The notes under the pieces were generated by a model, which was given only the letters and a program-made list of their open reading frames with translations, was not told the origin of the DNA and did not search any database. This document shows, one piece after another, positions 66 through 20,445 of a DNA stretch of 26,063 nt. How positions within the stretch are numbered: position 1 is the stretch's first letter; the number at the start of each line of letters is the position of its first letter. The DNA comes from a virus, in the IMG/VR virus record IMGVR_UViG_3300025168_000577, positions 1-26,063 of that record; one strand, written 5' to 3'. A program made the position numbers and the translations under genes.

Positions 66-99
66 TTAATTTATATTTTTTTTTAAAGTTTATTTTTAT

Positions 100-5479: not shown

Positions 5480-5639
5480 ATACGACACCGAACCTGACCA
5501 AGACAAAGAACCATACAAATGGTTTGCTTATTGGTTTTATAGGTTAAACCCTGATAGACATAGTTCATATTGGAACGTTCCACCTGCTACGGAAGAAGAC
5601 CGTAAAAAAATAGCTTTTATACGAGTTAAAACGGATTGA
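5469..5639 (+). CDS. Small hypothetical protein between terminase genes
   Basis: A 56-aa frame, MMNEYDTEPDQDKEPYKWFA at the start, rich in Trp, Tyr and Phe (YKWFAYWFYRLN). It overlaps the small terminase by 11 nt and its TGA overlaps the TTG start of the large subunit (ATTGA), so it fills the gap between two packaging genes exactly. That placement and uninterrupted reading support it as real. It might be a packaging accessory factor; no motif is recognised. Confidence 0.55.
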   Translation: MMNEYDTEPDQDKEPYKWFAYWFYRLNPDRHSSYWNVPPATEEDRKKIAFIRVKTD

Positions 5640-6790
5640 AGCAACCGACTACATATTACCAAGCTAAGAAGTCAAAGGCTAAAATACAAGTCCATCAAGG
5701 GGGTTCGCGTAGCGGAAAGACCTTCTCACTTTGCCAGGTTTTAATACAGCTTTGTTTTAGGAATAGAAATGCAGGTATTGTCATAACGATAGTACGCAAA
5801 ACTTTTCCTGCTTTACGCTCATCAGTTATGCGTGACTTTATGCAGATACTTACCGAAGGGGGTAACTACTACGAAGAACACCACAACAAAAGCAACGCGA
5901 CCTATAACCTATTTGGAAACCTAATCGAGTTTATCAGCACCGACCAACCCCAAAAACTAAGAGGACGTAAAAGAGATATTCTATACGTCAACGAGGCTAA
6001 CGAAATAACGTTGGAGGATTGGAGGCAGTTGCTACTTAGAACAACGGGTAGGATATTTATAGATTACAACCCTTCGGACGAGCATCATTGGATCTATGAC
6101 CATATCTTAGAACGCGAAGACGTGGACTTCTTTCAAACCACATACTTAGATAACCCCTTTTTAGAACAATCCGTTATAGACGAGATAGAACGCTTCAAAG
6201 AAACGGACGAAAACTTTTGGCGTATCTACGGACTTGGGGAAAGGGGGGTTAATGTGTCGGCTATATTCCCACAATGGCAAGTCGCTGATGCTATCCCTGA
6301 ACGTGCTAAGCTCGTAGCGTATGGATGTGACTGGGGGTTTACTAACGACCCAACGGCAATCGTTTCGGTATGGCGTGAGGACTATTCCCTATACATTCAA
6401 GAACACCTATACAAGACGGGATTAACGAACCGAGATATTAGTTTGGAGTTAGATAAATTATACTTAGATAGAACGCCAATCATTTGCGATAGTGCTGAAC
6501 CTAAATCTATCGAAGAACTACACCGTTTAGGCCATAACGTTAAGCCGTCTAAGAAAGGTCCTGATTCAATTCGGTTAGGTATTGACATAATGAAACGCCA
6601 CAAGCTATTCGTCTTGAAGGATTCCTTAAACGCACAAAAGGAGTTCCGCAATTACCGATGGGAGGTAGACCGTAACGGGGTACAACTAAATAAACCTATA
6701 GACCACACGAACCATATTATCGATGCAGTCAGGTACGTATGTATCAACCGCATCGGAACTTCTTACTCAGGCAAATATTACATTTCGTGA
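5636..6790 (+). CDS. terL: Terminase large subunit (packaging ATPase-nuclease)
   Basis: A 384-aa motor that pumps DNA into the prohead and cuts it. The Walker A motif GGSRSGKT is at residues 22-29. Walker B is DILYVNEAN at 114-122, with catalytic Glu120. The C-terminal nuclease has the expected acidic residues in YGCDWGFTNDPTA, IICDSAEP and NHIIDAVRY. At 384 aa it is slightly short for the family (about 400-450) but has both domains. It starts with TTG at 5636, overlapping the stop of the 56-aa gene; no ATG lies upstream of the Walker A in this frame. It resembles XtmB-type terminases of headful-packaging phages, which fits the suspicion of a permuted genome. Confidence 0.93.
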   Translation: MKQPTTYYQAKKSKAKIQVHQGGSRSGKTFSLCQVLIQLCFRNRNAGIVITIVRKTFPALRSSVMRDFMQILTEGGNYYEEHHNKSNATYNLFGNLIEFISTDQPQKLRGRKRDILYVNEANEITLEDWRQLLLRTTGRIFIDYNPSDEHHWIYDHILEREDVDFFQTTYLDNPFLEQSVIDEIERFKETDENFWRIYGLGERGVNVSAIFPQWQVADAIPERAKLVAYGCDWGFTNDPTAIVSVWREDYSLYIQEHLYKTGLTNRDISLELDKLYLDRTPIICDSAEPKSIEELHRLGHNVKPSKKGPDSIRLGIDIMKRHKLFVLKDSLNAQKEFRNYRWEVDRNGVQLNKPIDHTNHIIDAVRYVCINRIGTSYSGKYYIS

Positions 6791-6834
6791 AAGAACTCAC
6801 TTAATAGCATAACCAAAAGTGAACACGCACGTTT

Positions 6835-6907
6835 CCCGTAAACCCGTACGATTCCCGTAAAATACCCGTAACCCCAGTAAAACCAAGCAACCCCGCAAAC
6901 CCCGTAA
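6835..6907 (+). repeat. Cluster of CCCGTA words in a noncoding leader
   Basis: In the 139-nt gap after the large terminase gene, CCCGTA occurs exactly at 6835, 6843, 6854, 6865 and 6901, with near-copies at 6873 (CCAGTA) and 6892 (CCCGCA). The first four starts are 8, 11 and 11 nt apart, about one helical turn. All three rightward frames are broken by stops, so the gap is not coding. It could be a protein-binding array (packaging, replication or regulation) or an unstructured A/C-rich translation leader for the tail genes. Confidence 0.5.
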
Positions 6908-6929
6908 ATACCACCTTAAAAACCGCAAA

Positions 6930-7493
6930 ATGAAAATAACCGTTCCCGATTCCCTTGCTGACATAACCGTTAAGCAATACAAACTATTAGCTGATTTAAA
7001 CCTGGATGAGAAATCTACCGAGTGGATAGTGGAGGCGATTTGTATAATGTGCAACCTATCCAAAGAAGAAACCAACCAACTGACGATTCCTGAAATGGAA
7101 AAGATAAGCAGTATCATAAGCCGCATAAATGACGCTGACGGGCAAGACGAAAAGTTAGTATCGAAATTAGATTACAAAGGGAAGCGGTATGGATTCCATC
7201 CGAACCTATCTAAGCTCACGGTAGGCGAGTTTGCAGATTTAGAAACGTATTGCTCACAAGGTTTGTTCGATAACTTAGGTTATATTATCAGCATTCTTTA
7301 CCGACCTATCAAAACTGAATCGGGGGATTTCTACACGATAGAAGACTACAAAGGTGACGGTGATCCCACGTATTGGGATAACTTGAAGATGGACATAGTA
7401 ATGGGTGCTATCAATTTTTTTTTGTCTATAGGCGTGATATTAACAAAAGATTTAGCCAACTCTTTAGTGGAGGGGGAGGGGAAAATCTCATAG
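6930..7493 (+). CDS. Tail assembly chaperone-like protein (short form)
   Basis: A 187-aa protein that opens the tail gene cluster. The N-terminus (KITVPDSLADITVKQYKLLA) and the middle (FHPNLSKLTVGEFADLETY) resemble Bacteroidota phage proteins found before tail genes. In siphoviruses this place is held by the gpG-type chaperone, whose longer form arises by -1 frameshift. Here AAT followed by a run of nine T occurs at codons 162-165, and the -1 frame stays open to the next gene. The zero-frame end after the slip is 23 residues (beginning LSIGVILTKDLANS). The chaperone role is inferred from position and frameshift architecture, not from sequence identity to gpG. Confidence 0.6.
   Translation: MKITVPDSLADITVKQYKLLADLNLDEKSTEWIVEAICIMCNLSKEETNQLTIPEMEKISSIISRINDADGQDEKLVSKLDYKGKRYGFHPNLSKLTVGEFADLETYCSQGLFDNLGYIISILYRPIKTESGDFYTIEDYKGDGDPTYWDNLKMDIVMGAINFFLSIGVILTKDLANSLVEGEGKIS
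7415..7423 (+). other. Candidate -1 slippery site (T9)
   Basis: Nine T in a row follow AA. Read in the zero frame as AAT TTT TTT TTG, this contains T-TTT-TTT, which fits the X-XXY-YYZ form for tandem -1 slippage. It could also cause polymerase slippage or be a sequencing length error. A purine-rich stretch follows about 45 nt downstream; no clear pseudoknot was seen. Confidence 0.5.
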
Positions 7494-7660
7494 CTGAGAA
7501 GTGGGGATGGTATGCCACGATTCATTTTCTTGCAGGGGGAAATCCTTTGCATATAGAGGCGGCGACTGAAATTGAAATAGAATTGGCTTTTACGTTTTTA
7601 TCTTATGAACAAGACAATAGCCGAAAGGATAAAGCACCTGACGTAAACCAGTACCGATGA
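7421..7660 (+). CDS. Minus-1 frame extension of the tail chaperone (long form)
   Basis: An open -1 frame from the T9 run to the TGA at 7658-7660, 79 codons. It reads FVYRRDINKRFSQLFSGGGG, then AEKWGWYATIHFLAGGNP and ELAFTFLSYEQDNSRKD, sensible protein with a Trp-rich motif and a glycine linker. It has no ATG or GTG near its beginning; the first plausible start (a TTG near 7547) would discard the Trp motif. Its TGA overlaps the next gene's ATG (ATGA at 7657-7660), the normal junction style of this genome. A -1 slip on T-TTT-TTT would give a fusion of about 243 aa, as in gpG-T of lambda-type tails, where the long form recruits tail subunits to the tape measure. Confidence 0.55.
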   Translation, partial: FVYRRDINKRFSQLFSGGGGENLIAEKWGWYATIHFLAGGNPLHIEAATEIEIELAFTFLSYEQDNSRKDKAPDVNQYR

Positions 7661-8118
7661 AATCATACAAGCAGATAGTAGAACTTTTAGAAGACATAGA
7701 AGAAAAGCACTTAATTCTTCAATCGTTTCATGCAGGACCTTTAGACCAGGTCGACATCGCGAAACTTGGACAACCTGATTATCCGCTTTTGTATTGTGAG
7801 ATAATGGGGGTAACGATAGATAATGGGGTGCTAACATATGACCTTGAATTGTTGGTAGCGGATATGATTCTGCCCGACCTAAAGAATAGAACGCAAGTGT
7901 ATTCCGATACCTTGCAACTGCTTCACGATGTACTCGATATGTTTATTCAGTCATTAGCGAATAGCAACACAACGGTAGATAACGACTACAAGTTTGAACT
8001 ACCTGCAACGTGTACACCTTTCACGGCACGATTCGATAACGAGTTAACGGGGTGGAGTGGTTCATTTTCTATTGAGGTATCTAACTCAAACGATTTATGT
8101 ATAGCACCTTATGTCTAA
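7657..8118 (+). CDS. Putative tail completion/terminator protein
   Basis: A 153-aa protein. Its pattern (PDYPLLYCEIMGVTIDNGVL, then TYDLELLVADMI and a helix around SDTLQLLHDVLDMFIQSL, then GWSGSFSIEVSNSNDLCIAP) is like a family recurring in Bacteroidota phages between terminase and tail genes. The alternation of strands with one long helix is reminiscent of tail terminators that cap the tail tube; that is inference from pattern and position. ATG overlaps the stop of the chaperone extension, and the end overlaps the next gene by 8 nt. No catalytic motif is present. Confidence 0.5.
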   Translation: MKSYKQIVELLEDIEEKHLILQSFHAGPLDQVDIAKLGQPDYPLLYCEIMGVTIDNGVLTYDLELLVADMILPDLKNRTQVYSDTLQLLHDVLDMFIQSLANSNTTVDNDYKFELPATCTPFTARFDNELTGWSGSFSIEVSNSNDLCIAPYV

Positions 8119-8707
8119 ACCTACGATAGTAATTGGAAAGAAGACGTACCCTATGACCGAAACGATTAAGACGTTGGAGAAGATAGGGAAGATATGGCGC
8201 AAGAACGCACGTATCTCTTTACGTATGCAAGGCAAAGTAAACACGGGTGCGCTGTATAATTCTATGCCTGTAACCGTAGGTGAAAATCAACATGCATATT
8301 ATGTAAACATAACCCCCCAAGTTGATTACTGGGAGTTTGTAGATAAGGGAGTACAAGGGGCAAGTAGAAACATCTTCGCACGGCAGTCTGAATCGCCTTT
8401 TAAATTCGGTGCAAATAAAACACGAGGCTTACGAGGTGGGATTGATAAGTGGGTTATCCAAAAGGGCATACAAGGAACACGCGATGCACAAGGTAGATTT
8501 ACCCCTCGTAAGTCCTTAGTGTACCTTATTTCGAACGCAATATGGCATAGAGGGTTAAAGCCTACCTTCTTTATTTCGGACACCTTAAAACGGCTAAAAC
8601 CGAAAGCGATGAAATGGTTGGGATTAGCGTTAGGCGAAGACATAGCTAATGCGATTAAAAAAAGTTTAGCCATTAAAAAGAAAGCTCAATCTTTCGTTAA
8701 AGGTTAG
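8111..8707 (+). CDS. HK97 gp10-like head-tail/tail component
   Basis: A 198-aa basic protein. The N-terminal third (IKTLEKIGKIWRKNARISLR, then GALYNSMPVTVGE) and the WEFVDKGVQG segment resemble gp10-like neck or tail proteins of siphoviruses; the middle is rich in Arg and Gly (NKTRGLRGGIDKWVIQKGIQ). The C-terminus is odd: the last 28 codons are followed out of frame by a second, diverged copy of the same end. The stop TAG at 8705 lies at the very start of that second copy, so the gene has probably lost an original tail ending at 8778. Position between tail completion and distal tail genes supports a structural role. Confidence 0.55.
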   Translation: MSKPTIVIGKKTYPMTETIKTLEKIGKIWRKNARISLRMQGKVNTGALYNSMPVTVGENQHAYYVNITPQVDYWEFVDKGVQGASRNIFARQSESPFKFGANKTRGLRGGIDKWVIQKGIQGTRDAQGRFTPRKSLVYLISNAIWHRGLKPTFFISDTLKRLKPKAMKWLGLALGEDIANAIKKSLAIKKKAQSFVKG

Positions 8708-8778
8708 CGTTAGGGCAAGACATAGCCAACACAATTAAAGAAAGTTTAACACTCAATAAAAATATAGAAGCGAAATGA
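8624..8778 (+). repeat. Tandem imperfect duplication of a gene's 3' end, second copy out of frame
   Basis: Bases 8624-8670 and 8704-8750 match at 39 of 47 positions, offset 80 nt. The first copy encodes LALGEDIANAIKKSLAIKK in frame. The second, in the -1 frame, encodes LALGQDIANTIKESLTLNK followed by NIEAK and a TGA at 8776-8778. That TGA overlaps the next gene's ATG (ATGA), as at most junctions here. The 80-nt offset is one short of a codon multiple, suggesting a one-base loss after an in-frame duplication, or a base-call error. Confidence 0.7.
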
Positions 8779-10277
8779 GTATGACAATAGAATATGAACC
8801 AAGCACTGCATATGTACATGGGGCATTTGAACCGATAACTTTTGTAGTCACCTCAACGGAACAAGCAGGAGGAACGTTTTACAACTTTAAATACATAGCG
8901 GATATTTATATTGCCAGTACCGATTCACCTTACGCTTATGCTTTACAAGCTCGTATTAAGATTGACCCAAACAATGTAGGTGCAGGGATATTTCGAGTTG
9001 ATAAAATCATAGCAGATTACGTTGCTATAACTACGGGTGATTCTTCTACTTCTGCAGCAGGGTTTGTGAACGATACCATCCACACTTTAGGTTCTAACTC
9101 AACAACTAAAATTTGGGTAAATAATGACGGTACAAATTACCGAAAGATTAAAGTAAACTTCGGACAAGAATATTCTACTACTGCCACTACCGCACCAACT
9201 GAATATCTTGATATGCCTGGAGTTATCGACAACTATGTTAGTTGTGTAATGAGTGCAGGGATGCAAATGCTACCTACTTGGGATGAAGGTGGTAACTATG
9301 TTTCCGCAGGAAATAATTACCTTTTAGACTTTTGCCCTAACGATTCTACTAAAAAGGTTTTAAGCGATAGACAAACCACTACCGAATATACCTCAACCTT
9401 AGCTTCTAACGTAAGTGTGATAAACCAAGATGTAACGAATTTTGAGTGGCGCACTTTAGGGGTTCTTATGGACGATACTTCCCCAGTCGCTTCGGATGCA
9501 GTTAGTTTTTATGTAGCGTTATTTGATTCAAGCGATTCACAACTCGATGCAAATTGGTTTACCGCAGGAACAGACGGGGGAACTACCCCTGCCAATTCTG
9601 ACCAAGACTTTGAAAGGTTGCAATACGTAGGTATAGGAACAAGAAACTTAACTGCTCAAACAATAGATGCAGGATTTGCTACACACTTTAACGCAGGAAC
9701 CGTAGCGTACTACGAAGTGTTTTTTATGGACGATAGTGCCACCGTTCCTGCAAATGGAACGACTGGTAACATGGCTTCGCTATGCTATCGCTTTACGGTA
9801 AAATCTGCTTCATGTATTTATAGAAACCTAAACGGAACGAACAAATACAACTACGTAACTTTAGCATGGCAAAACTCTTTGGGGGCGTGGGATTACCAAG
9901 CGTTCGCTTTAAAGCATCAAAGAACCACAAGCAATATAGAACGCAAGACCTTTGACCAAGTGGCAGGGAATTGGGATACGGCTAATACAAGCGTACAATT
10001 TGCTTATCGTGGTGATGAGGGTGGGGTGACCACTACTCAGATACAAGCACGTCAAACGATGGTAGCTAATACCGATTTGTATAACGAAGACGAAGTTGCT
10101 TTTTTAGAGAACCTTTGGCTATCTCCAAAAGTGCAACTACTGAACTATGACGGCTCTGCTATTCCGATACTTTTAACGGATAAAAATTGGATACGTAAAA
10201 ACAACTTAAACGAAGGGGGTGCTTTTACCTACCAAGTAAAGTTTGAATATGGTAAACAAAGACCTACGGTACGATGA
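8775..10277 (+). CDS. Putative distal tail / baseplate protein
   Basis: A 500-aa protein rich in Thr, Ser, Asn and Gly with few charges, typical of phage tail-tip or fibre proteins. The N-terminus (TIEYEPSTAYVHGAFEPITF) and the late segment NKYNYVTLAWQNSLGAWDYQ, followed by AFALKHQRTTSNIERKTF, resemble a recurring Bacteroidota phage structural family. Near the end, DEVAFLENLWLSPKVQLLNY leads into a strand-rich C-terminus. No enzyme motif is visible. Its ATG overlaps the TGA of the orphaned tail of the previous gene, and its end overlaps the 1046-aa hub gene by 4 nt. Position between neck and hub genes suggests it links the tail tube to the tip. Confidence 0.6.
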   Translation: MSMTIEYEPSTAYVHGAFEPITFVVTSTEQAGGTFYNFKYIADIYIASTDSPYAYALQARIKIDPNNVGAGIFRVDKIIADYVAITTGDSSTSAAGFVNDTIHTLGSNSTTKIWVNNDGTNYRKIKVNFGQEYSTTATTAPTEYLDMPGVIDNYVSCVMSAGMQMLPTWDEGGNYVSAGNNYLLDFCPNDSTKKVLSDRQTTTEYTSTLASNVSVINQDVTNFEWRTLGVLMDDTSPVASDAVSFYVALFDSSDSQLDANWFTAGTDGGTTPANSDQDFERLQYVGIGTRNLTAQTIDAGFATHFNAGTVAYYEVFFMDDSATVPANGTTGNMASLCYRFTVKSASCIYRNLNGTNKYNYVTLAWQNSLGAWDYQAFALKHQRTTSNIERKTFDQVAGNWDTANTSVQFAYRGDEGGVTTTQIQARQTMVANTDLYNEDEVAFLENLWLSPKVQLLNYDGSAIPILLTDKNWIRKNNLNEGGAFTYQVKFEYGKQRPTVR

Positions 10278-13200
10278 TTGAACTATTTGCCTACGACCAA
10301 AGATATGAAAAGCAACAACTTTTAGATATTGAAGAAGCAGGTGCTATCTCTTTAAATTATGAGATAGGAACGGCAGGGGATTTAGTTGGCAGAAACAGCC
10401 CATATTCTCAAACCTTTAACCTCCCTTTTACTTCTACTAACAATAAGTTCTTTCGTCAGTTCTATAATATCAATGTTGAAACCGATATTAATTTAGGAGT
10501 AAGTGCATCTTCAGCTTTTGACGCTGACCTAAAAACTTTATGCGGTATTCACGTTGATGGCATACCAGTTATTTCGGGGATGTTTCAACTCATTAGCTGT
10601 TCGTTAGAGCAAAGGGTTTATAAGATAGCGGTGTACGGAAACGAAGCAAACCTTTTCCAAGCTATAAAAGAAAAGAAACTTATTGATGCTTTTAAATATG
10701 GGGATTCTTATGTTACCACTTATAACGTAAATATAAACGAGGCAAACATAATAGATTCATGGACTTTAACAAATGACGTAACACAAGGGGGAATTGGAAA
10801 CGGTATTATAATCTTCCCACTTATCGACTATGGGTTTGTTGGTGATTACAATTTTTTGTGGTTAGAAAATAACGGCTTTTTAAATCAAGGGTTAGCCGAA
10901 CCATATTTTTTACAAGCTCAGGACTTTAAACCTGCTATTCAATTACGAGCATTATTTGAGAAGGTAATAAACGAAGCAGGGTTTACCGTTGCATCAAATT
11001 CCTTTATTACAAGCGATGCTTTTTCTAAGGCATATATGACTTTAGGAACGGATAGGGAAAGTATGGCAACGACTACCCTACACCAAAGCCAAGTAGGTAA
11101 TACCGCATCTACAAACATACTTACATGGGGTGCTTTAGGTTCACCGATTAACTCCTGGCAACCAATTCTATTCCCCACCCAGTCGGGTGCAGGGGCGTCA
11201 AATAACCCCCCTTTATTTTATGATTCAAATGACGATTGGAATGTAGCAGGTGAATATATTTTTCCTTATACGGGTGCTTATAACGGAGTTATAAACGCAA
11301 CTTTTGATACTGGTCCTGCTTCTTTGACTAATGGGGCAACGGTGCAAATGATGGTAGAGGGATCTTTTGGAACTAATACTTTATCCCCTACTATTGATTT
11401 GGTAGGTAATGATGGAGGTGCTGCGATTGTTTCAAGTCACACCTTAATCTTTGACGTGCAAGGGATAGAAGGGGAAACACTAACCGTTAAAATGTTAGCA
11501 TATACTTCAGTAGGGTTTAGTGTTGACCTTTTAGCCGCAGGAACATTTTGTACGATTGTTTCTACGTCAATCGCAGGGGTTTGTGATACACCTGCTAACC
11601 TACCCGATGTTTCTCAAACCGATTTTATAACGGATATTCTACAAAGGTTTAATTTAGTTGTGGTAGCTGAAGAAAGCAATAGTCGGAATCTAACAATTAT
11701 GCCCTATCAGGATTACATAGATTCAGGCACAAGGAAAGATTGGACGCAGAAGTTAGACTTATCACAAGAACGTACTATCTCACCTACCACTAAATTCAAA
11801 AAACAATTTATAAAGTTTTCTGACTTAGAAGACGAAGACAATAGAAACGTTGCTAACCAAAACACCTACGGGGAAGTATTTGGAAACTATACTCAAAAGA
11901 TAAACGGGGATTTTTTAACGGGTAATTTAGAGAACAAATCTATCTTCTCACCCTTCCATGTTAATCCCGTTCCAAGACAAGATAATAGTTCAACTTCCGA
12001 TGCCCCTAATTTAGTAATCCATCAGGGTTATGCCTTTGGCACTACTGGTCCTTTAGCAAGTTGTAAACCAAAACTCTTTTATCATAACGGGTTAGAATAT
12101 CTACAATCAGACGATAGAATCTATGTGGGGTTAACTCAGTCGAATAATTACCCCCTTTGTTTACCTTACTATAACGCAGGAGGACAAATGGCAGAAGATT
12201 CTCCGATGTTATATTGGCAGTTTCAAACCCCGAACTCGTGGGGTGGTGTTGTCTATGGAACTACTCCAAGCTCTGAGGGGTATTTTAAGCGGTACTGGCA
12301 GCAGTTTCTTATGTCCTTTTATGATTCTAACGCACGAGTGCTTAACTGCTCTTTATACCTTACCGCAGCCGATATTCATAACTTTCAATTTAACGATGAA
12401 ATAGTAATAGAAGATACTGCATATCGTGTTTTAAACATAGATAACTACCAACCTAACGCAAACATCCCAACTAAAGTTCAACTATTAAAGAAGATATTTA
12501 ATGTTGGTGCTTTACAAATTACCGATGTAGGGGCTGACTGCGAAGCATCCCCCGTTGCTTTATTTGAAAGCGGAATAGTACAATTTCAAAATGATGTTAC
12601 GGGGGCAACCGTAACGAGTGAAATATGCTGCACCGAATACAATTACTTTTGGGATGGAACGGAGTGCTATTGGAACTACGGAGGCGGTGGTGGAGGAAGC
12701 GGTGACCCTACTACTGGACTTGGTGGTTGGAATCCACACGGTGTTCCTACGGACGATACAATAGGAGGTATAGATGATTTGAAAGGTGTAGGGGGATTTC
12801 ATACTCGTAAAAGAGGTGGAGTGGGTAATATCAACCCCGTACTTGGCGAACATTCTACACGAGGTCAAAACGTAGAAAGTATAGCCAACTCGGTAAATAA
12901 AACTTTCGTTTATTATGCCACAAGTAAATCAACTACTTCAACCATCGCAACCCCAAATGGAATAGAAGGGGAAAAGTCAGGGCTGCAAATTCCGTTGGAT
13001 ACTATGGCACGTTTTATCGTTAGGGCTTTAAGCGTTCAAACTCATGTACTCACGGGTGGTTCAGGATCGTTTGGTTCTTCTGCTTTCCAGGTGTGGACTT
13101 TTTTAGTTAAGAATGTAGGGGGAACGATTACCGTTGTGGGGGGGTCTGAACAAACCGACTTCCAAGAAGCTGATGCAGATGCAGGAACACGAACGTTAGA

Positions 13201-13414
13201 TATTGTCGGGGCAGCAGGTAAAGGGGGTTTTGCAGGGAATAGAGGTGTAAACATCGAGTGTACTGGTCCTGCTAATTCGCTTGTAGCATGGCACTTAGAC
13301 TGCGAGGTAACGTATATGGATTTCGCGTTTACTAAGAGCTTAGACAATTTGATTTTAACCGAAGACTATAATTATTTAATTACCGAAAACGGGTACTATT
13401 TAGAACAAGAATGA
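10274..13414 (+). CDS. Tail hub/tip protein with C-terminal receptor-binding-like domain
   Basis: A 1046-aa protein, the largest here. The N-terminal part (LNYEIGTAGDLVGRNSPYSQ, then TFNLPFTSTNNKFFRQFYN and DGIPVISGMFQLISC) is typical of Bacteroidota phage tail-hub proteins. Two cysteine pairs occur around residues 755-795 (GADCEAS and EICCTEYN). A glycine hinge (YGGGGGGSGDPT, about 801-812) leads to a basic Gly-rich linker and a beta-rich C-terminal domain (about 870-1015). The last residues repeat a phrase: LILTEDYNYLITENGYYLEQ. I infer a conserved hub attached to a variable adhesion domain. There is no tail lysin motif. Junctions are ATGA on both sides. Confidence 0.65.
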   Translation: MIELFAYDQRYEKQQLLDIEEAGAISLNYEIGTAGDLVGRNSPYSQTFNLPFTSTNNKFFRQFYNINVETDINLGVSASSAFDADLKTLCGIHVDGIPVISGMFQLISCSLEQRVYKIAVYGNEANLFQAIKEKKLIDAFKYGDSYVTTYNVNINEANIIDSWTLTNDVTQGGIGNGIIIFPLIDYGFVGDYNFLWLENNGFLNQGLAEPYFLQAQDFKPAIQLRALFEKVINEAGFTVASNSFITSDAFSKAYMTLGTDRESMATTTLHQSQVGNTASTNILTWGALGSPINSWQPILFPTQSGAGASNNPPLFYDSNDDWNVAGEYIFPYTGAYNGVINATFDTGPASLTNGATVQMMVEGSFGTNTLSPTIDLVGNDGGAAIVSSHTLIFDVQGIEGETLTVKMLAYTSVGFSVDLLAAGTFCTIVSTSIAGVCDTPANLPDVSQTDFITDILQRFNLVVVAEESNSRNLTIMPYQDYIDSGTRKDWTQKLDLSQERTISPTTKFKKQFIKFSDLEDEDNRNVANQNTYGEVFGNYTQKINGDFLTGNLENKSIFSPFHVNPVPRQDNSSTSDAPNLVIHQGYAFGTTGPLASCKPKLFYHNGLEYLQSDDRIYVGLTQSNNYPLCLPYYNAGGQMAEDSPMLYWQFQTPNSWGGVVYGTTPSSEGYFKRYWQQFLMSFYDSNARVLNCSLYLTAADIHNFQFNDEIVIEDTAYRVLNIDNYQPNANIPTKVQLLKKIFNVGALQITDVGADCEASPVALFESGIVQFQNDVTGATVTSEICCTEYNYFWDGTECYWNYGGGGGGSGDPTTGLGGWNPHGVPTDDTIGGIDDLKGVGGFHTRKRGGVGNINPVLGEHSTRGQNVESIANSVNKTFVYYATSKSTTSTIATPNGIEGEKSGLQIPLDTMARFIVRALSVQTHVLTGGSGSFGSSAFQVWTFLVKNVGGTITVVGGSEQTDFQEADADAGTRTLDIVGAAGKGGFAGNRGVNIECTGPANSLVAWHLDCEVTYMDFAFTKSLDNLILTEDYNYLITENGYYLEQE

Positions 13415-13590
13415 AACAATACATAGACAACGTAGGGAAGTCGATGCCCTACACTTTAAAACTCGCACAAGAAAAGGAAGTAATAGTAGATAACTATTCT
13501 TTAATCCTTTACGGGTATTATCAGTACACGGGATTACGTGGTTTTTTTAAGAAGGTTAGACAAGGAATAAAAGCAAGAAACAATGGCTGA
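13411..13590 (+). CDS. Small basic hypothetical protein before the tape measure
   Basis: A 59-aa frame, MKQYIDNVGKSMPYTLKLAQ at the start, with LILYGYYQYTGLRGFFKKVR near the end. The ATG overlaps the hub gene's stop (ATGA) and the end overlaps the tape measure start by 8 nt, so it fills the gap exactly. It is basic with an aromatic centre. A tail accessory role is inferred from place only. Confidence 0.55.
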   Translation: MKQYIDNVGKSMPYTLKLAQEKEVIVDNYSLILYGYYQYTGLRGFFKKVRQGIKARNNG

Positions 13591-15235
13591 GAAAATAGAA
13601 GTAGGAATAACGATAAAAGGGGCAGATGCCGCCACTAAAGAAGTAAACAAAGTTGATTCCGCGACTAAAGGTTTAGGGGGCAATATAGATATGGCAACGG
13701 GTGCGCTTGATAAAATGACTGGGGGGGCGGTTTCTGCCTTTAAGGGAATTATCAGTGGAGTAAAGAAAGCCGTTATAGGAATGAAAACACTAAAAACCGC
13801 AATAATTTCTACGGGAATTGGGGCATTAGTTGTTGCAGTAGTTTCATTGGTAGCTTATTTCACTTCTTCACGGAAGGGTGCTAATCAATTAAAGGTAGCG
13901 ATGGCTGCTATGGGTGCAGTAGTGGAACGTGTAACGGGATATTTTGCTGCGGCAGGGGGGTATTTAAAGAATCTCTTTACCGTTGGCCATAAGGCGGCAG
14001 CAGTTGCTTTCAATGAAGAAATAAAAAAGTTGCCTGGTTCTATGCAGGACGTAATAGATAAGGCAATAGAGTTAGAGAAAAGGTCACAAGCATTACGGAA
14101 TACCCAACGGGATATGACGGTAGCTTTTGCCGAAGGGAGGGCGCAAATCAAAGAATACAATATGGTTGCGGAAGATGTTACAAGGTCTTTGAAAGATAGA
14201 CTGGAAGCGGCACAAAAAGCGATAGATATTGAAAGGGAGTTAATGGCAGAGCGTCAAAGAAACGCGCAAGAAGAATACGACATAGCTTTAGAAAGGGCAG
14301 CGCAAAGCGATACAAGCGAAGAAGACTTAGACAATCTTGCGGCATTAGAAGTAACCCTAATAAATATCAGGACAGAATCGGCTGAAATGCAAACGACTTT
14401 AAATAACAAGTTAAACATCATACGCCAACAATCGGCTGCCGCAGCCCAAGCGGAAGCTGATGCAGTTATTGAAGCAGAAAAAGAGAAACAAGATGCTTTA
14501 AAAGCAACCGCAGAAATTGAAGCAAAAATACGTGCTGAAAAAGAAGGACATCAATTTAACGCGGAACAATCTTTAAGGGATTATTTAAAGACTGAAGAAG
14601 AATTAGAAATAGAAGCATTTGATAAAAAAGCGGCAGCCTTACTTATGGCAAATCTTACCGCAGGGGAAGACGCAAATAAATTGTATGAAAAATTAGATAA
14701 AGAACGACAAGCCATAACGGATAAATATAACGCAGAAGAAGTAGCCACCGCAGAAGCTACTGCACAAGCGGTACGGGCTGCAAGATTGGGGATAGTAGCG
14801 GCAGGGTTTCAGGCTTTGCAGTCTATGGCAAAAACCGAAGAAGGACAAAAGAAGTTAGCCATATCACAAATCTTAGTTAATCAAGGTATCGCGATGGCAG
14901 AGGCTTATCGAGGTGCTATGCAATCCGCTACGGGAACTGGACCATTAGCGGCGTTTACTGCACCAGGTTTTACTGCAACTATGATAGGTATGGTATTAAG
15001 TTCTTTCGCTTCAATTAAGGGCGTAATGAATCAAGCAGGGGCATCTTCGGGTTCGATTGGTACATCATCGGCAGGAGGTAGTAGTGCAGGGATGCAATTA
15101 GGATTAACACCCAACATAGAAGGGGTAACCCAAATTCAAGAACCCGTTGCGCCCGTTAAAGCCTTTGTAGTACAAAGTGAATTAGCTGACGAAAGTGCTT
15201 TAGTTGCTCAGTTAAAGGCTATGGCATCTTTATAA
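13583..15235 (+). CDS. Tail tape measure protein
   Basis: A 550-aa protein rich in Ala, Glu, Lys and Gln. The N-terminus (EVGITIKGADAATKEVNKVD) is the common tape-measure opening. A hydrophobic stretch at about 70-92 (AIISTGIGALVVAVVSLVAY) could insert in the host membrane during DNA entry. A long coiled coil spans about 195-400. The last 80 residues are Gly/Ser/Met-rich. No lysozyme or peptidase domain is seen. By the rule of about 1.5 angstrom per residue, the tail would be roughly 80 nm. Unusually, it stands upstream of the head genes instead of after them. A weak motif before the next gene suggests a new transcript starts after it. Confidence 0.85.
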   Translation: MAEKIEVGITIKGADAATKEVNKVDSATKGLGGNIDMATGALDKMTGGAVSAFKGIISGVKKAVIGMKTLKTAIISTGIGALVVAVVSLVAYFTSSRKGANQLKVAMAAMGAVVERVTGYFAAAGGYLKNLFTVGHKAAAVAFNEEIKKLPGSMQDVIDKAIELEKRSQALRNTQRDMTVAFAEGRAQIKEYNMVAEDVTRSLKDRLEAAQKAIDIERELMAERQRNAQEEYDIALERAAQSDTSEEDLDNLAALEVTLINIRTESAEMQTTLNNKLNIIRQQSAAAAQAEADAVIEAEKEKQDALKATAEIEAKIRAEKEGHQFNAEQSLRDYLKTEEELEIEAFDKKAAALLMANLTAGEDANKLYEKLDKERQAITDKYNAEEVATAEATAQAVRAARLGIVAAGFQALQSMAKTEEGQKKLAISQILVNQGIAMAEAYRGAMQSATGTGPLAAFTAPGFTATMIGMVLSSFASIKGVMNQAGASSGSIGTSSAGGSSAGMQLGLTPNIEGVTQIQEPVAPVKAFVVQSELADESALVAQLKAMASL

Positions 15236-15253
15236 ATAAACGCAAATAGAATT

Positions 15254-15265
15254 TACATTTTTACC
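15254..15265 (+). promoter_or_regulatory. Candidate phage promoter/start motif, copy 2
   Basis: TACATTTTTACC ends 3 nt before the ATG at 15269, first gene of the head module. It matches the element before 3210 in 10 of 12 bases, and both are preceded by CGCAAATA. TACATTTT also fits 7 of 8 positions of the host -7 box. Confidence 0.35.
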
Positions 15266-15268
15266 ATT

Positions 15269-16123
15269 ATGAGAAAACAAGTAGAGTTGTTAATTGACGA
15301 AGACGAGCTTACTGGAATCGAAGCCGTAAGCCTTGTAAGGTTTCCTGCCATAGAACAAAATTGGGTGTACCTAAGTGCAACCCAAGACAAGAAGATGCAG
15401 TTTGCTACCGATGATGAGAAACGGATGCTTATTGGTCCTGCATTGATACCTGATAAATTGATTATGCGGTTAGACGAAGACGATGAAGAATACGATGTGT
15501 TTTTTTCAAAGGAAACGGTACGTCATGCGATGGAGTTATTTATGCAAGAAGCACGAACTAACGAAAGCACCTTAGAACACCAATCTAAGATAGACGGGGT
15601 AACCGTAGTGGAATCGTGGTTGATAGAAGACAAGAAGAAAGATAAGGCTGCTTTGTACGGCTTTGAACTTCCTATTGGTACGTGGATGCTATCCGTAAAA
15701 GTAAACAATGCAGATATTTGGGAAAAGGTAAAAGCAAAGGACGTTCGTGGTTTCTCGGTGGAAGGATTTTTTACTGATAGGCTCGTTGAGATGATGAAAG
15801 GAAAGTTATGTAAAAACTGCCCTGAAGATAAAGAAATTTTAGAGAAGCTAAAAGCCATCATTTTAGACGAGCTTAAGCCCAGTTCTTTCCTTAATGACAA
15901 ACCCCTATTCGATAGCAAAAGAACGGCTGAATTATGGGGTCAGATGTTCCACGATGTATCGGGGTTTGAAGAAGTTAAGTTAAACGGTCAAACTCTCTAC
16001 ACCGCTAACTATCGCTTAGAATCTTACGACTGGGATACTTGTGTAAGGGAACAAACTGCGGAGTATGGATCTAAAGAAATAGCGGAGAAGGTATGCGGAA
16101 CGATACGTGCTAAATATGGATAA
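15269..16123 (+). CDS. XkdF-like head maturation serine protease
   Basis: A 284-aa protein resembling the XkdF/S78_2 protease family that trims capsid and scaffold. The conserved run is clear: EKRMLIGPALIPDKLIMR, then YDVFFSKETVRHAMELFMQE, LEHQSKIDGVTVVESWLIED, and VRGFSVEGFF. By analogy with related proteases the likely active residues are His104 (LEHQ) and Ser163 (GFSVEG). A C-terminal part (about 255-284, YDWDTCVREQTAEYGSKEIA, then EKVCGTIRAKYG) is a small separate Cys-containing domain found on several Bacteroidota phage proteins. It is followed by scaffold-like and capsid genes, the normal order protease-scaffold-capsid. Confidence 0.8.
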   Translation: MRKQVELLIDEDELTGIEAVSLVRFPAIEQNWVYLSATQDKKMQFATDDEKRMLIGPALIPDKLIMRLDEDDEEYDVFFSKETVRHAMELFMQEARTNESTLEHQSKIDGVTVVESWLIEDKKKDKAALYGFELPIGTWMLSVKVNNADIWEKVKAKDVRGFSVEGFFTDRLVEMMKGKLCKNCPEDKEILEKLKAIILDELKPSSFLNDKPLFDSKRTAELWGQMFHDVSGFEEVKLNGQTLYTANYRLESYDWDTCVREQTAEYGSKEIAEKVCGTIRAKYG

Positions 16124-16174
16124 AATAAACGTAATTGAAATAACTGTTTTTAACCTTGTAAAGCTATACTTAAA

Positions 16175-16855
16175 ATGAATACAATTCAAAAAATCCGTGA
16201 GATTATGGGATTACCAAAAACCAATCTCTACGCCGAAGTCAAGATTGACGATGGGCGTGTACTTGTAACCGAAGCCGATGCCTTTGAGCCTGGCGTAGAT
16301 GTTCGTGTAATTGATGACGGTGGAAGTACCGTTGTTCTTGATGCAGGAACTTACACTTTAGAAGATGGCCGTAAGGTTATCGTAAACGAAGATTCTCGTA
16401 TGGAATCTTTCGAGGTAGAAGAAGAAGAAATTGAAGTGGAGGTAGAATTGGAAACAATCCCCGAAGCAGAAGAAGAAGGCTACCGCGATGGAATAGACGA
16501 TGAAAAGGAAGACGTTCGTGAAGATATGGATTACGATAAAGTGCGTGATGTACTTGCTGACCGTTTCCCTGACCTTGACGAATCGGTAAGGGATGCAATC
16601 GCACAAGTTGTTTCTGACATCTATACACCCGAAGTAGAGGTGGAAGTGGAAGCATCTAAAGAAGATTTAAGCGAACTTTTAGAAGAAGCGTTTGCATCAA
16701 TAAGCAAAAGACTTGAAGCATTAGAAAACGTACCTGCGGAATCAGGCGTTAATGTTTCACCAACTAACCTTTCGGCAAAGCACACGCAGAAAGACTTAAC
16801 TAAATTATCAGGTGTGGACCGTGCGCTACATATTATTCAAAATTCTCATCGATGA
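16175..16855 (+). CDS. Acidic scaffold-like head assembly protein
   Basis: A 226-aa strongly acidic protein between protease and major capsid genes, where a scaffold is expected. Residues about 10-75 look beta-rich (YAEVKIDDGRVLVTEADAFE). Residues about 80-120 are nearly all Glu, Asp and Val (EVEEEEIEVEVELETIPEAE), and about 160-190 (SKEDLSELLEEAFASISKRL) is a probable coiled coil. The C-terminus (DLTKLSGVDRALHIIQNSHR) is conserved-looking and may bind the capsid. Its TGA overlaps the capsid ATG. Removal by the XkdF-like protease during maturation is inferred. The 51-nt gap before it contains TAACCTTG, close to a host -7 box but without a -33 element at proper distance. Confidence 0.6.
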   Translation: MNTIQKIREIMGLPKTNLYAEVKIDDGRVLVTEADAFEPGVDVRVIDDGGSTVVLDAGTYTLEDGRKVIVNEDSRMESFEVEEEEIEVEVELETIPEAEEEGYRDGIDDEKEDVREDMDYDKVRDVLADRFPDLDESVRDAIAQVVSDIYTPEVEVEVEASKEDLSELLEEAFASISKRLEALENVPAESGVNVSPTNLSAKHTQKDLTKLSGVDRALHIIQNSHR

Positions 16856-17826
16856 ATTTATCATTAAACAAGAAGTATAACTTCGATATTGACGCAACCG
16901 TCAATACTTATGCAGGGGAGTTAGCCCTTCCTTATGTAACTGCTGCACTTCTCGGTGCAGAAACAATCGCTAAAGGGCGTTGCCGCTTTTTAGAAGGTAT
17001 CGTAGGTAAGACCGTTATTAGCGGACTTGGTTTTAGTACCGATACAATCGTTGCTGCAAATTGCGACTTTGCTGATAACTCGGCACTTGTATTAACTGAA
17101 CAAGTTTTAGACCCTGCGGATTTAGCCGTTATGGAAGAAATTTGCAGAGGTACTATGTATCCTACATGGATTGCTGCTAACGGAAGAATGGAACGTAACG
17201 GACAACTACCCGTAGCGTGGTCTGATTTTCTATTAGGCGCGGTTGCTGAAAAAACTGGTACAAACTTAGAATCTCTACTTTGGACGGGTGCTGCACCTTT
17301 TGGAGTTGGTTTCCTTTCTAACGATGGAACTATTGACGAAGCAGGTATAGACGCTTCTGCTTGTGCAGACTTTATTGAGCACGACACAGCAGCAGCAGCT
17401 TGGACTAACGCAACTATCTTAGGTCATATGAGTGGTGTATTTGATGCAGCACAAGCTGTACCAGGTATTTTACAAAAGCCAGGTTGTGGGTTCTTCTTAT
17501 CTTACGAAGCATACGCTTTTTTCTTACAAGCTATGGCAGAGCAAAACACTGGACCTGGTTTTAATCAGTCTATGGAGGGTGCAACTTACTTAGGTTACCC
17601 AGTTTACCCAACTTCGGGAATACCTAACGCGGTTGATGTTATGGTATTCACTTACCCTGACAACTTGGTGGTAGGTGCAAACAGCTACACGGCTGACATC
17701 GCTGCACAACTAATCCCAACATACATGTATGATGGTTCGGACAACGTTCGCGCTTCTATGCGTTTCGCTGTTGGAGTTCAAACTGGTGTTGCAGGTGACG
17801 GGGTTGTAGGATTCAACTTTACTTAA
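16852..17826 (+). CDS. Major capsid protein
   Basis: A 324-aa protein. Its place after protease and scaffold-like genes, its size, and its Ala/Gly-rich low-charge composition fit a HK97-fold capsid subunit. The N-terminus (FDIDATVNTYAGELALPYVT) and the late segment MEGATYLGYPVYPTSGIPN, followed by a TYPDNLVVGANSYTADIAAQ stretch, resemble capsid proteins of Bacteroidota phages. A C-terminal segment (DNVRASMRFAVGVQTGVAG) matches the usual final strand region. There is no long N-terminal delta domain, consistent with the separate scaffold gene. It shares ATGA with the scaffold gene, allowing coupled translation. Confidence 0.82.
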   Translation: MNLSLNKKYNFDIDATVNTYAGELALPYVTAALLGAETIAKGRCRFLEGIVGKTVISGLGFSTDTIVAANCDFADNSALVLTEQVLDPADLAVMEEICRGTMYPTWIAANGRMERNGQLPVAWSDFLLGAVAEKTGTNLESLLWTGAAPFGVGFLSNDGTIDEAGIDASACADFIEHDTAAAAWTNATILGHMSGVFDAAQAVPGILQKPGCGFFLSYEAYAFFLQAMAEQNTGPGFNQSMEGATYLGYPVYPTSGIPNAVDVMVFTYPDNLVVGANSYTADIAAQLIPTYMYDGSDNVRASMRFAVGVQTGVAGDGVVGFNFT

Positions 17827-17838
17827 TACTTAAATAAA

Positions 17839-18447
17839 ATGGCTTGTAAAATAACTGCCGCACGGGGTATAGATTGCCGTGACGCTATTGGTGGCTTAAA
17901 AGCTATTTATTTTTGTAGCTCTTATTCTGCTAACATACTTGCTTCGGCAACGGTTACCGCTGATTCATATACTATAACTGACGCAGACTTTGCTGATTGG
18001 GATATTTATGGTTCACCAACGGTTGGTAAAGTGCAAGTGTATAAGTATGATTTAGTAACTGACCTATCAACTTTTAAATCTGCTGTTGAAGCGGATAAAG
18101 CTACGGGATCAGTTATGTGGAATCAGACTTTAGACGTAGTTCTACATAAAGTTGTAGCTGCTGATTTATTCCAACTCGGACTAATTTCTAAGAACCGTGC
18201 GCAAATCTTTGTGCAAGATTCAAATGACAATGTGTACTTGATGGGTATAACTGACGGTTGTTATTTAACGGGTGGTGATTCTATCGCTACGGGAACAAAT
18301 CGTTCTGATATGAATGGTTTGACGTTAAGTTTCACAGCTAAGGAACAAGCACCGTTGTACATACTACCTACACCAACGTTAGGTGGTACAAACTATCCTT
18401 TCGATGGTTTGACTGATGGTGCAGATATTGCTATTACGGCAGCCTAA
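17839..18447 (+). CDS. Putative major tail tube or capsid-associated structural protein
   Basis: A 202-aa protein. The opening MACKITAARGIDCRDAIGGL, with KAIYFCSSYS, resembles a recurring Bacteroidota phage structural protein (Cys-x9-Cys then GGLK). The middle has SVMWNQTLDVVLHKVVAADL and the end DMNGLTLSFTAKEQAPLYIL, like the last strands of tail tube subunits. It is the last gene before a strong terminator, so it is probably transcribed at high level with the capsid gene, as expected for a repeating subunit. A tail tube is my preferred reading, because no other tube candidate is seen; a head decoration protein is possible. It lies 12 nt after the capsid gene. Confidence 0.55.
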   Translation: MACKITAARGIDCRDAIGGLKAIYFCSSYSANILASATVTADSYTITDADFADWDIYGSPTVGKVQVYKYDLVTDLSTFKSAVEADKATGSVMWNQTLDVVLHKVVAADLFQLGLISKNRAQIFVQDSNDNVYLMGITDGCYLTGGDSIATGTNRSDMNGLTLSFTAKEQAPLYILPTPTLGGTNYPFDGLTDGADIAITAA

Positions 18448-18471
18448 AAGCTAACGTAACGAAACGAAACT

Positions 18472-18503
18472 GGGAGGGTGGCACAAGCCGTCCTCCCTTT
18501 TTT
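18472..18503 (+). terminator. Rho-independent terminator after the capsid operon
   Basis: GGGAGGGTGGC pairs with GCCGTCCTCCC (11 bp including two G-T pairs) around the loop ACAA, followed directly by six T. This is a strong intrinsic terminator for the transcript carrying capsid and tail-tube-like genes. The next gene starts 38 nt later, so it needs its own promoter or read-through. Confidence 0.88.
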
Positions 18504-18524
18504 ATTATAAACGGATTTACACTT

Positions 18525-18536
18525 TCTATTCTTACC
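18525..18536 (+). promoter_or_regulatory. Candidate phage promoter/start motif, copy 3
   Basis: TCTATTCTTACC ends 4 nt before the ATG at 18541. It shares TTCTTACC with copy 1 and, like copy 2, is preceded by ATTTACA. It lies between a strong terminator and the next gene, where a promoter is needed. TATTCTT is a poor fit to the normal host -7 box. Confidence 0.35.
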
Positions 18537-18540
18537 ATTG

Positions 18541-20445
18541 ATGCTACAAATTCTATCTACATCTAACGAAACTTCTACGGGTCCTGAATTGGTGCAGAAT
18601 GGAGATTTTAGTGCTGTTCCATTAGGTAGTGAGCTTGTGACTGATGGAAACTTTCCAACGCCAAATGTAAATTGGAGTTTATCGACAGCATTTTCAATAG
18701 CAAATAACAAGCTGCATTGTGTATCAGATGGAACATATGAATTTGCTTATCAGAGTTCAGTATTTGAAATAGGAAAATCATATGTAATTACTTTTGATAT
18801 TACTGGATGGAGTTTAGGAACAATAAGAGTAAGACCGACTGCTGAATCTCCTTTTCAAACTGCTTCTGCTAATGGTAGTTTTTCTTTTTTTTATGTAGCT
18901 GTTGAAAATACTCAATTAATAATAGAAAGAGATGGTGCTTGTGATATGTACCTTGAAAATATTTCAGTTAAGGAAGCTACCAACCTTGTAAGCAATCCAA
19001 ACTTTACGGATACGGGAAGTGAGTTAGCTACATTTTCATTAGGTAATATTTCTTTTGCTAATTTGGATGGAAGTATAAGCACTTCATTGGGTGGTATAGA
19101 TTATCGAAGCGTTGCAATAGGTGATACAAATGATTCACGACCAAGAGTTTCATTTGATAATTTAACTGAGGGAAAATCATACAAAGTAGTTTATACCCCA
19201 TCTTCTACTACTGGAGTTTCAGACTTTGATTTGTTTCAAAACGGAGTAAGACTTGTATTAAATCATGATATTTCTTTACCATTAACAACTTATCTAATAG
19301 CTGGTTCAGGGTATAATGGAATAGATTTTAATGGTACAAATACTTTTACGACTGACTATACTCTATCCATCAAAGAACTCGGAGAGGGATGGACACTTGG
19401 AACTGGGTGGAGTATTGGAGAAGATACAGCTATCTCAGACGGCACAAATGCGGCTTTATCACAAGCGAGTGGATTGACACCAAATTCATATTATAAAATT
19501 ACCGTCACTAAATCAGGTGTAGGAGGAATATATTTTGATTCCAGTAGTTTTTATGGCGATGCGTCAAGTAGGTTAATTGCAGACGGCACAAGTACAACTT
19601 ATTTACAAGCGAAAATTTCAACTTTTTCCGTTGAAGCAACTACATCTCCCAGTCCTTCTACAATCACAAACATCGTAGTTCAAGAACTCGGTGAAGATTG
19701 GACGCTTGGAACGGGGTGGTCAATAGGTGATTTAAAAGCGGTATGTGACGGAACGCAAGTTGCAAATAGTAACCTTTACCAAGCTGTTTATACAATAAGT
19801 AACTCATACAAAACTACCATAAACGTTATTAGAACTGCGGGGACTTTGTACGTCTATACAGGGACACCCTCTCAAACGATTACGATAACATCAAGTGGAA
19901 CGTATAACTTTAGTGGATTATCTTCATCTTCAACAAATTTATACATACAAGCGCAATCTGACTTTGTTGGTTCAGTAGCAAACGTATCAGTAAAACTTTT
20001 AGGGACATACGATGCCCAAAGCATCTACGTTACCGCCGCAGACGTTCAAACTATTCCACAAGCGAGTGTGTATTACTTAGTAGAATTAACTTCTATGGCT
20101 TCGAAGAATAGCATATACTTCCTTCCATCTTCGGTAGTACCCAATAATGGACGTTATACTAAATTGAATTTCACGGTAATAAGCAAAGACGCAACACCTA
20201 CCCCTGCAAGTGGGATTATTTCTTTCTATGATTCCGTTGGTGGGTTTGATACCTACCCTATGGGGTTTTATGAGTTTAGAATCTACGAGCAAACAAGCTC
20301 TACGAACTTAGACCCGACATTAGCTACTGGACTTTTAGAGAAGGGCTTTGCCTTCGTTCGTGATTTTAGTGGTAATATGCAAGAACTTACTGACGGCTTC
20401 AAAGAATACAACCCTGCCTTAACACAATACGTTTACTCAAAATGA
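18541..20445 (+). CDS. Mosaic carbohydrate-binding-like structural protein
   Basis: A 634-aa protein. The first 430 residues hold repeated beta-sandwich-like units resembling galactose-binding/CBM jelly rolls. They open with LVQNGDFS, LVTDGNFP and LVSNPNFT, and contain WTLGTGWSIG twice with ELGEGW/ELGEDW before it. The last 150 residues (AQSIYVTAADVQTIPQASVY onward, with DTYPMGFYEFRIYEQ) look like a conserved structural domain, probably the virion attachment part. I infer a receptor- or glycan-binding decoration protein. Bases 18661-19380 contain 9 CpG, against 38 in the 720 bases from 20461, so the repeat region is probably a recent import. ATG 18541 is preferred over TTG 18538. The end overlaps the portal gene by 4 nt. 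Confidence 0.65.
   Translation: MLQILSTSNETSTGPELVQNGDFSAVPLGSELVTDGNFPTPNVNWSLSTAFSIANNKLHCVSDGTYEFAYQSSVFEIGKSYVITFDITGWSLGTIRVRPTAESPFQTASANGSFSFFYVAVENTQLIIERDGACDMYLENISVKEATNLVSNPNFTDTGSELATFSLGNISFANLDGSISTSLGGIDYRSVAIGDTNDSRPRVSFDNLTEGKSYKVVYTPSSTTGVSDFDLFQNGVRLVLNHDISLPLTTYLIAGSGYNGIDFNGTNTFTTDYTLSIKELGEGWTLGTGWSIGEDTAISDGTNAALSQASGLTPNSYYKITVTKSGVGGIYFDSSSFYGDASSRLIADGTSTTYLQAKISTFSVEATTSPSPSTITNIVVQELGEDWTLGTGWSIGDLKAVCDGTQVANSNLYQAVYTISNSYKTTINVIRTAGTLYVYTGTPSQTITITSSGTYNFSGLSSSSTNLYIQAQSDFVGSVANVSVKLLGTYDAQSIYVTAADVQTIPQASVYYLVELTSMASKNSIYFLPSSVVPNNGRYTKLNFTVISKDATPTPASGIISFYDSVGGFDTYPMGFYEFRIYEQTSSTNLDPTLATGLLEKGFAFVRDFSGNMQELTDGFKEYNPALTQYVYSK
19375..19755 (+). repeat. Diverged direct repeat within the binding-protein gene (309-nt period)
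   Basis: GAACTCGG at 19375 and 19684 each begin a similar stretch of about 70 nt. Both encode an ELGE-x-WTLGTGWSIG phrase followed by a DGT motif. The spacing of 309 nt is 103 codons, one domain length, so two tandem domains arose by duplication. The second copy has the CpG-rich wording of the rest of the phage genome, the first does not. Confidence 0.65.

What the first reader, a model, noticed from the sequence alone, without database searches (positions are those of the whole stretch)
7401..7660. Programmed -1 frameshift (or slippage) at T9 in the tail chaperone gene
The zero frame ends at 7493, but the -1 frame is open from the T9 run at 7415-7423 to a TGA that forms ATGA with the next gene. 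The extension reads as good protein (AEKWGWYATIHFLAGG), has no start codon of its own, and is encoded just where siphoviruses keep the gpG/gpGT chaperone. The site is a plain T-TTT-TTT, not the usual G-containing heptamer. A one-base error in the homopolymer would give the same picture.
Basis: partly seen in the sequence, partly recalled or inferred. Interest (0 to 1): 0.7.

Follow-up and report, generated by a model that had tools for sequence, protein, structure and literature searches.

The report
Slippage-decoded two-product phage tail gene
A marine Bacteroidota phage gene makes a short and a long protein from one start by slipping at a run of nine Ts, and because every frameshifted relative examined keeps an unbroken run of nine or ten Ts wherever it falls in the codons, the slip most likely happens when RNA is copied from DNA and not, as in other phages, on the ribosome.

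Summary
In detail: T9 at 7415-7423, zero frame ending at 7493, and a -1 frame with no start codon running to TGA 7658-7660, which overlaps the next ATG. It is no sequencing error. All 353 complete homologous IMG/VR, phage and genome loci (217 distinct junctions), cultured phages P12024L/S, and six more Bacteroidota genomes carry the extension in the -1 frame behind a run of exactly 9 or 10 T. Distant relatives (Duneviridae, Leef, a Microcystis phage) encode the same long protein as one ORF without the run. The mechanism is more likely transcriptional slippage than a ribosomal heptamer. The run sits in all three codon phases (at least 11 changes on the tree) but is never under 9. Flanking codons compensate: AAT-TTTTTT-TTG, GTT-TTTTTT-TAT, TTT-TTTTTT-CTG. 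A change to TTC that is silent in both frames in 71 of 117 lineages, and leaves a good ribosomal heptamer, is never seen. No stimulatory RNA structure was found. Against this, the direction is always -1, which by a published criterion points to the ribosome. 'Tail chaperone' is plausible but only weakly supported; the gene lies behind terminase, 6 kb before the tape measure gene.

The parts
6930..7493 (+). Zero-frame ORF (short product, 187 aa). Residues 1-164 are conserved; the part after the slip site is a short variable tail.
   Evidence: phrog_32199 (unknown function), E 2.3e-11. AlphaFold model pLDDT 86.6.
7415..7423 (+). T9 slip site. Zero-frame codons AAT|TTT|TTT|TTG, covering T_TTT_TTT (7415-7421) and T_TTT_TTG (7418-7424).
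   Evidence: T9 or T10 in all 217 distinct junctions, phases 0, 1 and 2.
7424..7660 (+). -1 frame extension (78 aa plus TGA) with the KWGWY motif; reached only by frame change; fused product 243 aa.
   Evidence: Substitution pattern follows the -1 frame. Homologous to the C-terminal part of one-ORF relatives.
7657..8118 (+). Next gene (153 aa, phrog_30964, unknown). Its ATG overlaps the extension's TGA (ATGA), so slippage could couple its translation.
   Evidence: A phrog_30964 gene also follows in Flagellimonas.
5636..6790 (+). Terminase large subunit directly upstream; the same neighbour in P12024L/S and Flagellimonas.
13583..15235 (+). Probable tape measure protein (550 aa), about 6 kb downstream of the slip gene.
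   Evidence: phrog_24676, E 6.9e-5.

Best explanation
This is a virion-assembly gene, probably of the tail, that yields two proteins from one start. Most mRNAs carry the templated U9 and give the 187-aa short form. When RNA polymerase slips on T9, some mRNAs get one extra U (U10), which puts the -1 frame in register and gives the 243-aa form with a conserved C-terminal KWGWY domain, ending at ATGA beside the next gene. mRNAs that lose a U stop almost at once. Shown here by comparison: the extension is a real, selected protein segment; it is always in -1; the run is kept at 9-10 T in any codon phase. Inferred: slippage by RNA polymerase as the main mechanism, the product ratio, and a gpG/gpGT-like role.
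For: 353 loci and 217 distinct junctions all have T9 or T10 and the extension in -1. Further genomes G217, G206, G1348, G756, G1407 and G1374 agree, down to E about 1e-8, as do cultured phages P12024L/S. On a tree of 117 lineages the run changes codon phase at least 11 times and phase or length 15 times, never below 9 or above 10. Flanking codons compensate; by block permutation the chance that all runs are 9 or 10 is 0.0011 to under 1e-4 depending on how blocks are counted. c3p3 T to C would be silent in both frames in 71 of 117 lineages and would leave U_UUU_UUC, an efficient E. coli heptamer (PMC4066793), but is seen in 0 of 217; the invariant YGF Phe codon shows 29 TTC of 103 with 25 changes on the same tree. 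No downstream RNA structure (mean z -0.04 against controls of -0.32 to +0.08). The +1 frame closes after a median of 2 codons. After the run, third positions of the -1 frame vary most. The fused protein aligns over 235 columns with one-ORF phage proteins (hhalign 98.4%, E 5e-15). Precedents: Thermus dnaX A9 and Shigella mxiE U run (PMC1088944); mxiE 20-30% and mxiA 15% slippage (PMC4256274).
Against: The direction is -1 in every locus; Antonov et al. 2013 (PMC3711429) found both directions in confirmed transcriptional cases and would class a one-direction cluster as ribosomal. Every T9 also contains in-frame T_TTT_TTT. P2-like ribosomal sites also lack downstream structure (PMC3091744), so its absence is weak evidence. 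Independent changes of the individual flanking sites are few (3-5 independent pairs for c1p2). An SD-like motif lies upstream in 18 of 117 against 1 control. No RNA or protein was measured, and slippage by Bacteroidota RNA polymerase on T9 is untested here.
Confidence: 0.7

Rival explanations
1. Programmed -1 ribosomal frameshifting: tandem tRNA-Phe slip on T_TTT_TTT (or T_TTT_TTG) as in P2 E/E' or lambda G/GT, with the long T run only raising efficiency.
For: Direction always -1. In-frame T_TTT_TTT in all. T_TTT_TTG, the P2 site (PMC3091744), is present in the window's clade. Tail chaperone precedent is ribosomal (PMC5009743).
Against: Seven nucleotides would do, yet the run is always 9-10 and compensated on either side. 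The free last position is never C, although TTC is silent in both frames in 71 of 117 lineages and shift-prone in E. coli. No structure.
Confidence: 0.17
2. Both mechanisms contribute at one site, since any T9 is a slippery heptamer as well as a polymerase slip site.
For: Poly-A run length correlated with frameshift yield for magnesium chelatase cassettes (7, 9, 11 A giving 10, 40, 63%) in E. coli (PMC3711429).
Against: The ribosomal share cannot be seen in the sequence; the conservation pattern is explained by run length alone.
Confidence: 0.12
3. A one-base sequencing or assembly error, or a pseudogene, in the homopolymer; the true gene is one continuous ORF.
For: Distant relatives do have one ORF.
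Against: All 217 distinct junctions from independent metagenomes, two cultured phages and several bacterial genomes show the same offset; none in the family is continuous.
Confidence: 0.01

Closest known systems
Phage P2 gene E/E+E' tail chaperone (PF10109 Phage_TAC_7), -1 shift at TTTTTTG
   Same: Two products from one start, -1 direction, T-rich site, no downstream hairpin; 7 of 49 short-form sequences match Phage_TAC_7 weakly (best E 0.0013).
   Different: P2 lies between tail tube and tape measure and uses a heptamer. Here the run is 9-10 T in any phase, the gene follows terminase, and the match is below Pfam's cut-off.
Phage lambda gpG/gpGT
   Same: Short form plus a -1 extension as a separate C-terminal domain.
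   Different: Lambda uses ribosomal slippage; no sequence relation was found.
Shigella mxiE / Thermus dnaX / IS630-type transcriptional slippage (T or A runs of 9 or more)
   Same: Nine-base homopolymer; an inserted nucleotide opens the longer frame (mxiE).
   Different: Those are bacterial or IS genes; here it is a phage assembly gene, and the direction is never reversed.
phrog_25418 one-ORF proteins of Duneviridae (Flavobacterium 23T, laban; Cellulophaga Ingeline), Polaribacter Leef, Microcystis phage Mea-Yong924-1
   Same: Homologous to the fused product end to end.
   Different: One continuous ORF of 259-301 aa, no T9, no frameshift.

Membership tests
Programmed transcriptional slippage site | Homopolymer of about 9 or more A or T kept by selection | tested here: met
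   T9/T10 in 217 of 217; silent interruptions absent.
Programmed transcriptional slippage site | Run position free of codon phase | tested here: met
   Phases 0, 1, 2 with at least 11 changes.
Programmed transcriptional slippage site | Orthologues in both frame directions (Antonov criterion) | tested here: not met
   Only -1. A heuristic, not a requirement; expected if one-base insertion dominates.
Programmed transcriptional slippage site | Heterogeneous mRNA length at the run | not testable with these tools
   Needs cDNA.
-1 ribosomal frameshift site | In-register X_XXZ_ZZN heptamer | tested here: met
   T_TTT_TTT in all, implied by any T9.
-1 ribosomal frameshift site | Conservation limited to the heptamer, last position free | tested here: not met
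-1 ribosomal frameshift site | Downstream structure or upstream SD-like stimulator | tested here: not met
   Mean z -0.04; SD-like motif in 18 of 117. Not obligatory, P2 has none.
Tail assembly chaperone (gpG/gpGT-like) | Short and frameshifted long product from one gene | tested here: met
   Architecture only; products not measured.
Tail assembly chaperone (gpG/gpGT-like) | Sequence or fold match to a known chaperone family | tested here: inconclusive
   Phage_TAC_7 in 7 of 49 below cut-off; phrog_166 'tail protein' in 23 of 49, best E 3.6e-4; one Foldseek hit named tail assembly chaperone, E 2.8e-4; no PDB match.
Tail assembly chaperone (gpG/gpGT-like) | Located between major tail protein and tape measure gene | tested here: not met
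   Behind terminase; tape measure about 6 kb downstream.

The most novel reading that the evidence does not exclude
A large, mostly uncultured group of Bacteroidota phages has fixed RNA polymerase slippage at a T9/T10 run, instead of ribosomal frameshifting, to set the ratio of two forms of an assembly protein, probably the tail chaperone. The run wanders through codon phases under selection for its length alone.
Probability: 0.65. Interest if true: 0.72.

Novelty: new variant of a known kind. Interest (0 to 1): 0.62.

Why it matters
The papers read here describe frameshifted phage tail chaperone genes as translational. This family offers a case, conserved over hundreds of phages and across deep divergence, in which the decoding event appears to have moved to transcription. 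That would tie the protein ratio to RNA polymerase and not to the ribosome. It gives a clean, testable comparative signature (run length kept, codon phase free, silent interruptions absent) for separating the two mechanisms from sequence alone. It also shows that two genes annotated as hypothetical in P12024L/S (gp40/gp41 and gp38/gp39) are one gene, and gives a domain to a family that Pfam lacks and PHROGs leaves without function.

Tried and rejected
Sequencing error: rejected. Separate start for the extension: no start codon in the window's -1 frame; P12024L's annotated ATG lies downstream of the conserved start of the extension. Stimulatory RNA structure: none in 117 lineages, none in the window (z -0.84), no Rfam match. 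Terminator-like site at the T run: none. Genome-contig scan with the extension alignment: no relative; with the short-form alignment five. PDB by sequence and fold: nothing. Flavobacterium phage 6H looked like another frameshifted relative, but its near-identical relative 23T has one ORF, so 6H is an isolated indel or error.

Full report
Observation. The window (a 26,063-base IMG/VR virus record) has T9 at 7415-7423 inside the ORF 6930-7493, read AAT TTT TTT TTG. The -1 frame is open from 36 nt upstream of the run to TGA 7658-7660, overlapping the next ATG. It has no start codon near the run and the extension has no Met. It missed that T_TTT_TTG (7418-7424), the P2 E/E' heptamer, is also in register, and it placed the gene nearer the tape measure than it is: terminase is directly upstream and the probable tape measure gene starts at 13583.

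Homologues. Searches with the short form and with the extension in IMG/VR, phage records and bacterial genomes gave 355 loci with the short form; 353 carry the extension and the other two end before it. All 353 have it in the -1 frame. After removing identical junctions 217 remain, at short-form identities down to about 25-30%. Every one has a run of exactly 9 (185) or 10 (32) T at the same place; none has 8 or fewer, none 11 or more, and none is continuous. The cultured Nonlabens phages P12024L and P12024S have it too, annotated as two hypothetical genes. About 1,590 genome searches of Bacteroidota added six more genomes with T9 and the -1 extension (G217, G206, G1348, G756, G1407, G1374), some matching at only E 1e-8 to 1e-16. 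Two other weak matches (G124, G275) are one-ORF forms without the run. An error in the homopolymer is thereby excluded.

The extension is protein. In 39 ungapped close relatives, substitutions after the run concentrate in the third position of the -1 frame, both in the overlap (0.233 against 0.079 at second positions) and beyond it (0.287 against 0.074). The motif KWGWY and the following ...LT-L-YE-D are conserved across the family. Distant phages (Duneviridae 23T, laban6-1, Ingeline_1; Polaribacter Leef_1; Microcystis Mea-Yong924-1) encode one ORF of 259-301 aa that aligns with the fused product across the junction: hhalign 98.4%, E 5.1e-15, 235 columns; the extension HMM alone finds the Microcystis protein at E 3.6e-6. 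So the long product is the whole protein as these relatives make it, and the slip adds a short form. Which state is older was not determined.

Mechanism: run length against heptamer. A ribosomal -1 heptamer needs X_XXZ_ZZN, here T_TTT_TTN. Any T9 contains it, so its presence does not discriminate. Four things bear on it. First, the run lies in codon phase 0, 1 or 2, with at least 11 phase changes and 15 phase or length changes on a tree of 117 lineages, always 9 or 10. Second, the codons on each side compensate: where codon 1 contributes one T (AAT, GGT, GCT, GAT, AGT, TCT), codon 4 always starts TT; where it contributes two (GTT, CTT, ATT), codon 4 starts with one T or TT; where it contributes three (TTT), codon 4 may be CTG. 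Permuting over tree-defined blocks gives P 0.0011 for the most conservative block count, 6.5e-5 for blocks forced by well-supported branches, and none in 200,000 for the parsimony count. The blocks are approximate, so these are guides and not exact probabilities. Third, changing the last base of the second TTT to C is silent in the zero frame always, and silent in the -1 frame in 71 of 117 lineages (TTA/TTG to CTA/CTG). It leaves U_UUU_UUC, among the efficient motifs in E. coli (PMC4066793). It occurs in none of 217, whereas the equally invariant Phe of the YGF motif is TTC in 29 of 103 with 25 changes on the same tree. Fourth, there is no excess of RNA structure downstream. All four are expected if selection acts on an uninterrupted run long enough for RNA polymerase to slip; the first three are not expected for a heptamer. 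Runs of 9 A or T are documented polymerase slip sites (PMC1088944), with 15-55% slippage in Shigella genes and 20-25% at A11 in Citrobacter tssM (PMC4256274).

What speaks against it. The direction is -1 without exception. Antonov et al. (PMC3711429) observed both directions within transcriptional families and used one-direction clusters as a sign of ribosomal shifting. One-base insertion as the main slip product would give -1 only, as in mxiE, and here the +1 frame closes after a median of 2 codons, so deletions make only a truncated form; but this is an explanation after the fact. The single-site compensation rests on few independent changes. A mixed mechanism is possible; poly-A run length is known to raise frameshift yield in E. 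coli. No RNA or protein was measured. I put polymerase slippage as the main mechanism at 0.7, ribosomal at 0.17, a real mixture at 0.12.

Function. Neighbours are terminase upstream and phrog_30964 and a Neck1/HK97-gp10-like gene downstream; terminase and phrog_30964 flank the gene in Flagellimonas too. The short form belongs to phrog_32199 (unknown). It weakly matches phrog_166 'tail protein' (23 of 49) and Phage_TAC_7 (7 of 49, best E 0.0013, below cut-off). Its model (pLDDT 86.6) hits a viral protein named tail assembly chaperone at E 2.8e-4 and nothing in the PDB. A gpG/gpGT-like chaperone is the best guess (about 0.55), but position is not the usual one and no match passes a curated threshold, so I do not file it as a member of a chaperone family.

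Overlap with the next gene. The long form ends at ATGA with the next gene, while the short form ends 164 nt earlier. Slippage could therefore also raise translation of the next gene by coupling, as reviewed for Shigella spa13/spa32 (PMC5009743). This is inference.

Literature. Paper searches found no report of transcriptional slippage in a phage tail gene; the library holds open papers only, so this is not proof of absence.

Noticed in passing
window 76-84: A second T9 run near the left end of the record, before the first ORF (start 107); not part of any frameshifted pair that I looked at.
   Followed up: no
window 13138 and 13721: Two G7 runs inside long ORFs (the 1046-aa ORF and the probable tape measure gene); could be slip-prone or mutable sites.
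   Followed up: no
L357 (NC_021867, Flavobacterium phage 6H) 10352-10927: The one-ORF homologue (293 aa in near-identical phage 23T) is broken by a frame change in 6H; either a real mutation or a sequencing error in that record.
   Followed up: partly
L110 4001-4695, L358 1237-1931 (P12024L gp40/41, P12024S gp38/39): Two annotated hypothetical genes in these cultured phages are one frameshifted gene with T9.
   Followed up: yes
L353, L355: Contigs binned as a Euryarchaeota and a Pseudooceanicola MAG carry this phage gene with T9; probably phage contigs misbinned, or a wider host range.
   Followed up: no
window 5636-23047: Unusual late gene order: terminase, then tail-like genes, tape measure, then protease, capsid and portal-like genes.
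   Followed up: no
L373 (Microcystis phage Mea-Yong924-1): A phage recorded from Microcystis carries a protein otherwise seen here in Bacteroidota phages; the recorded host may deserve a check.
   Followed up: no
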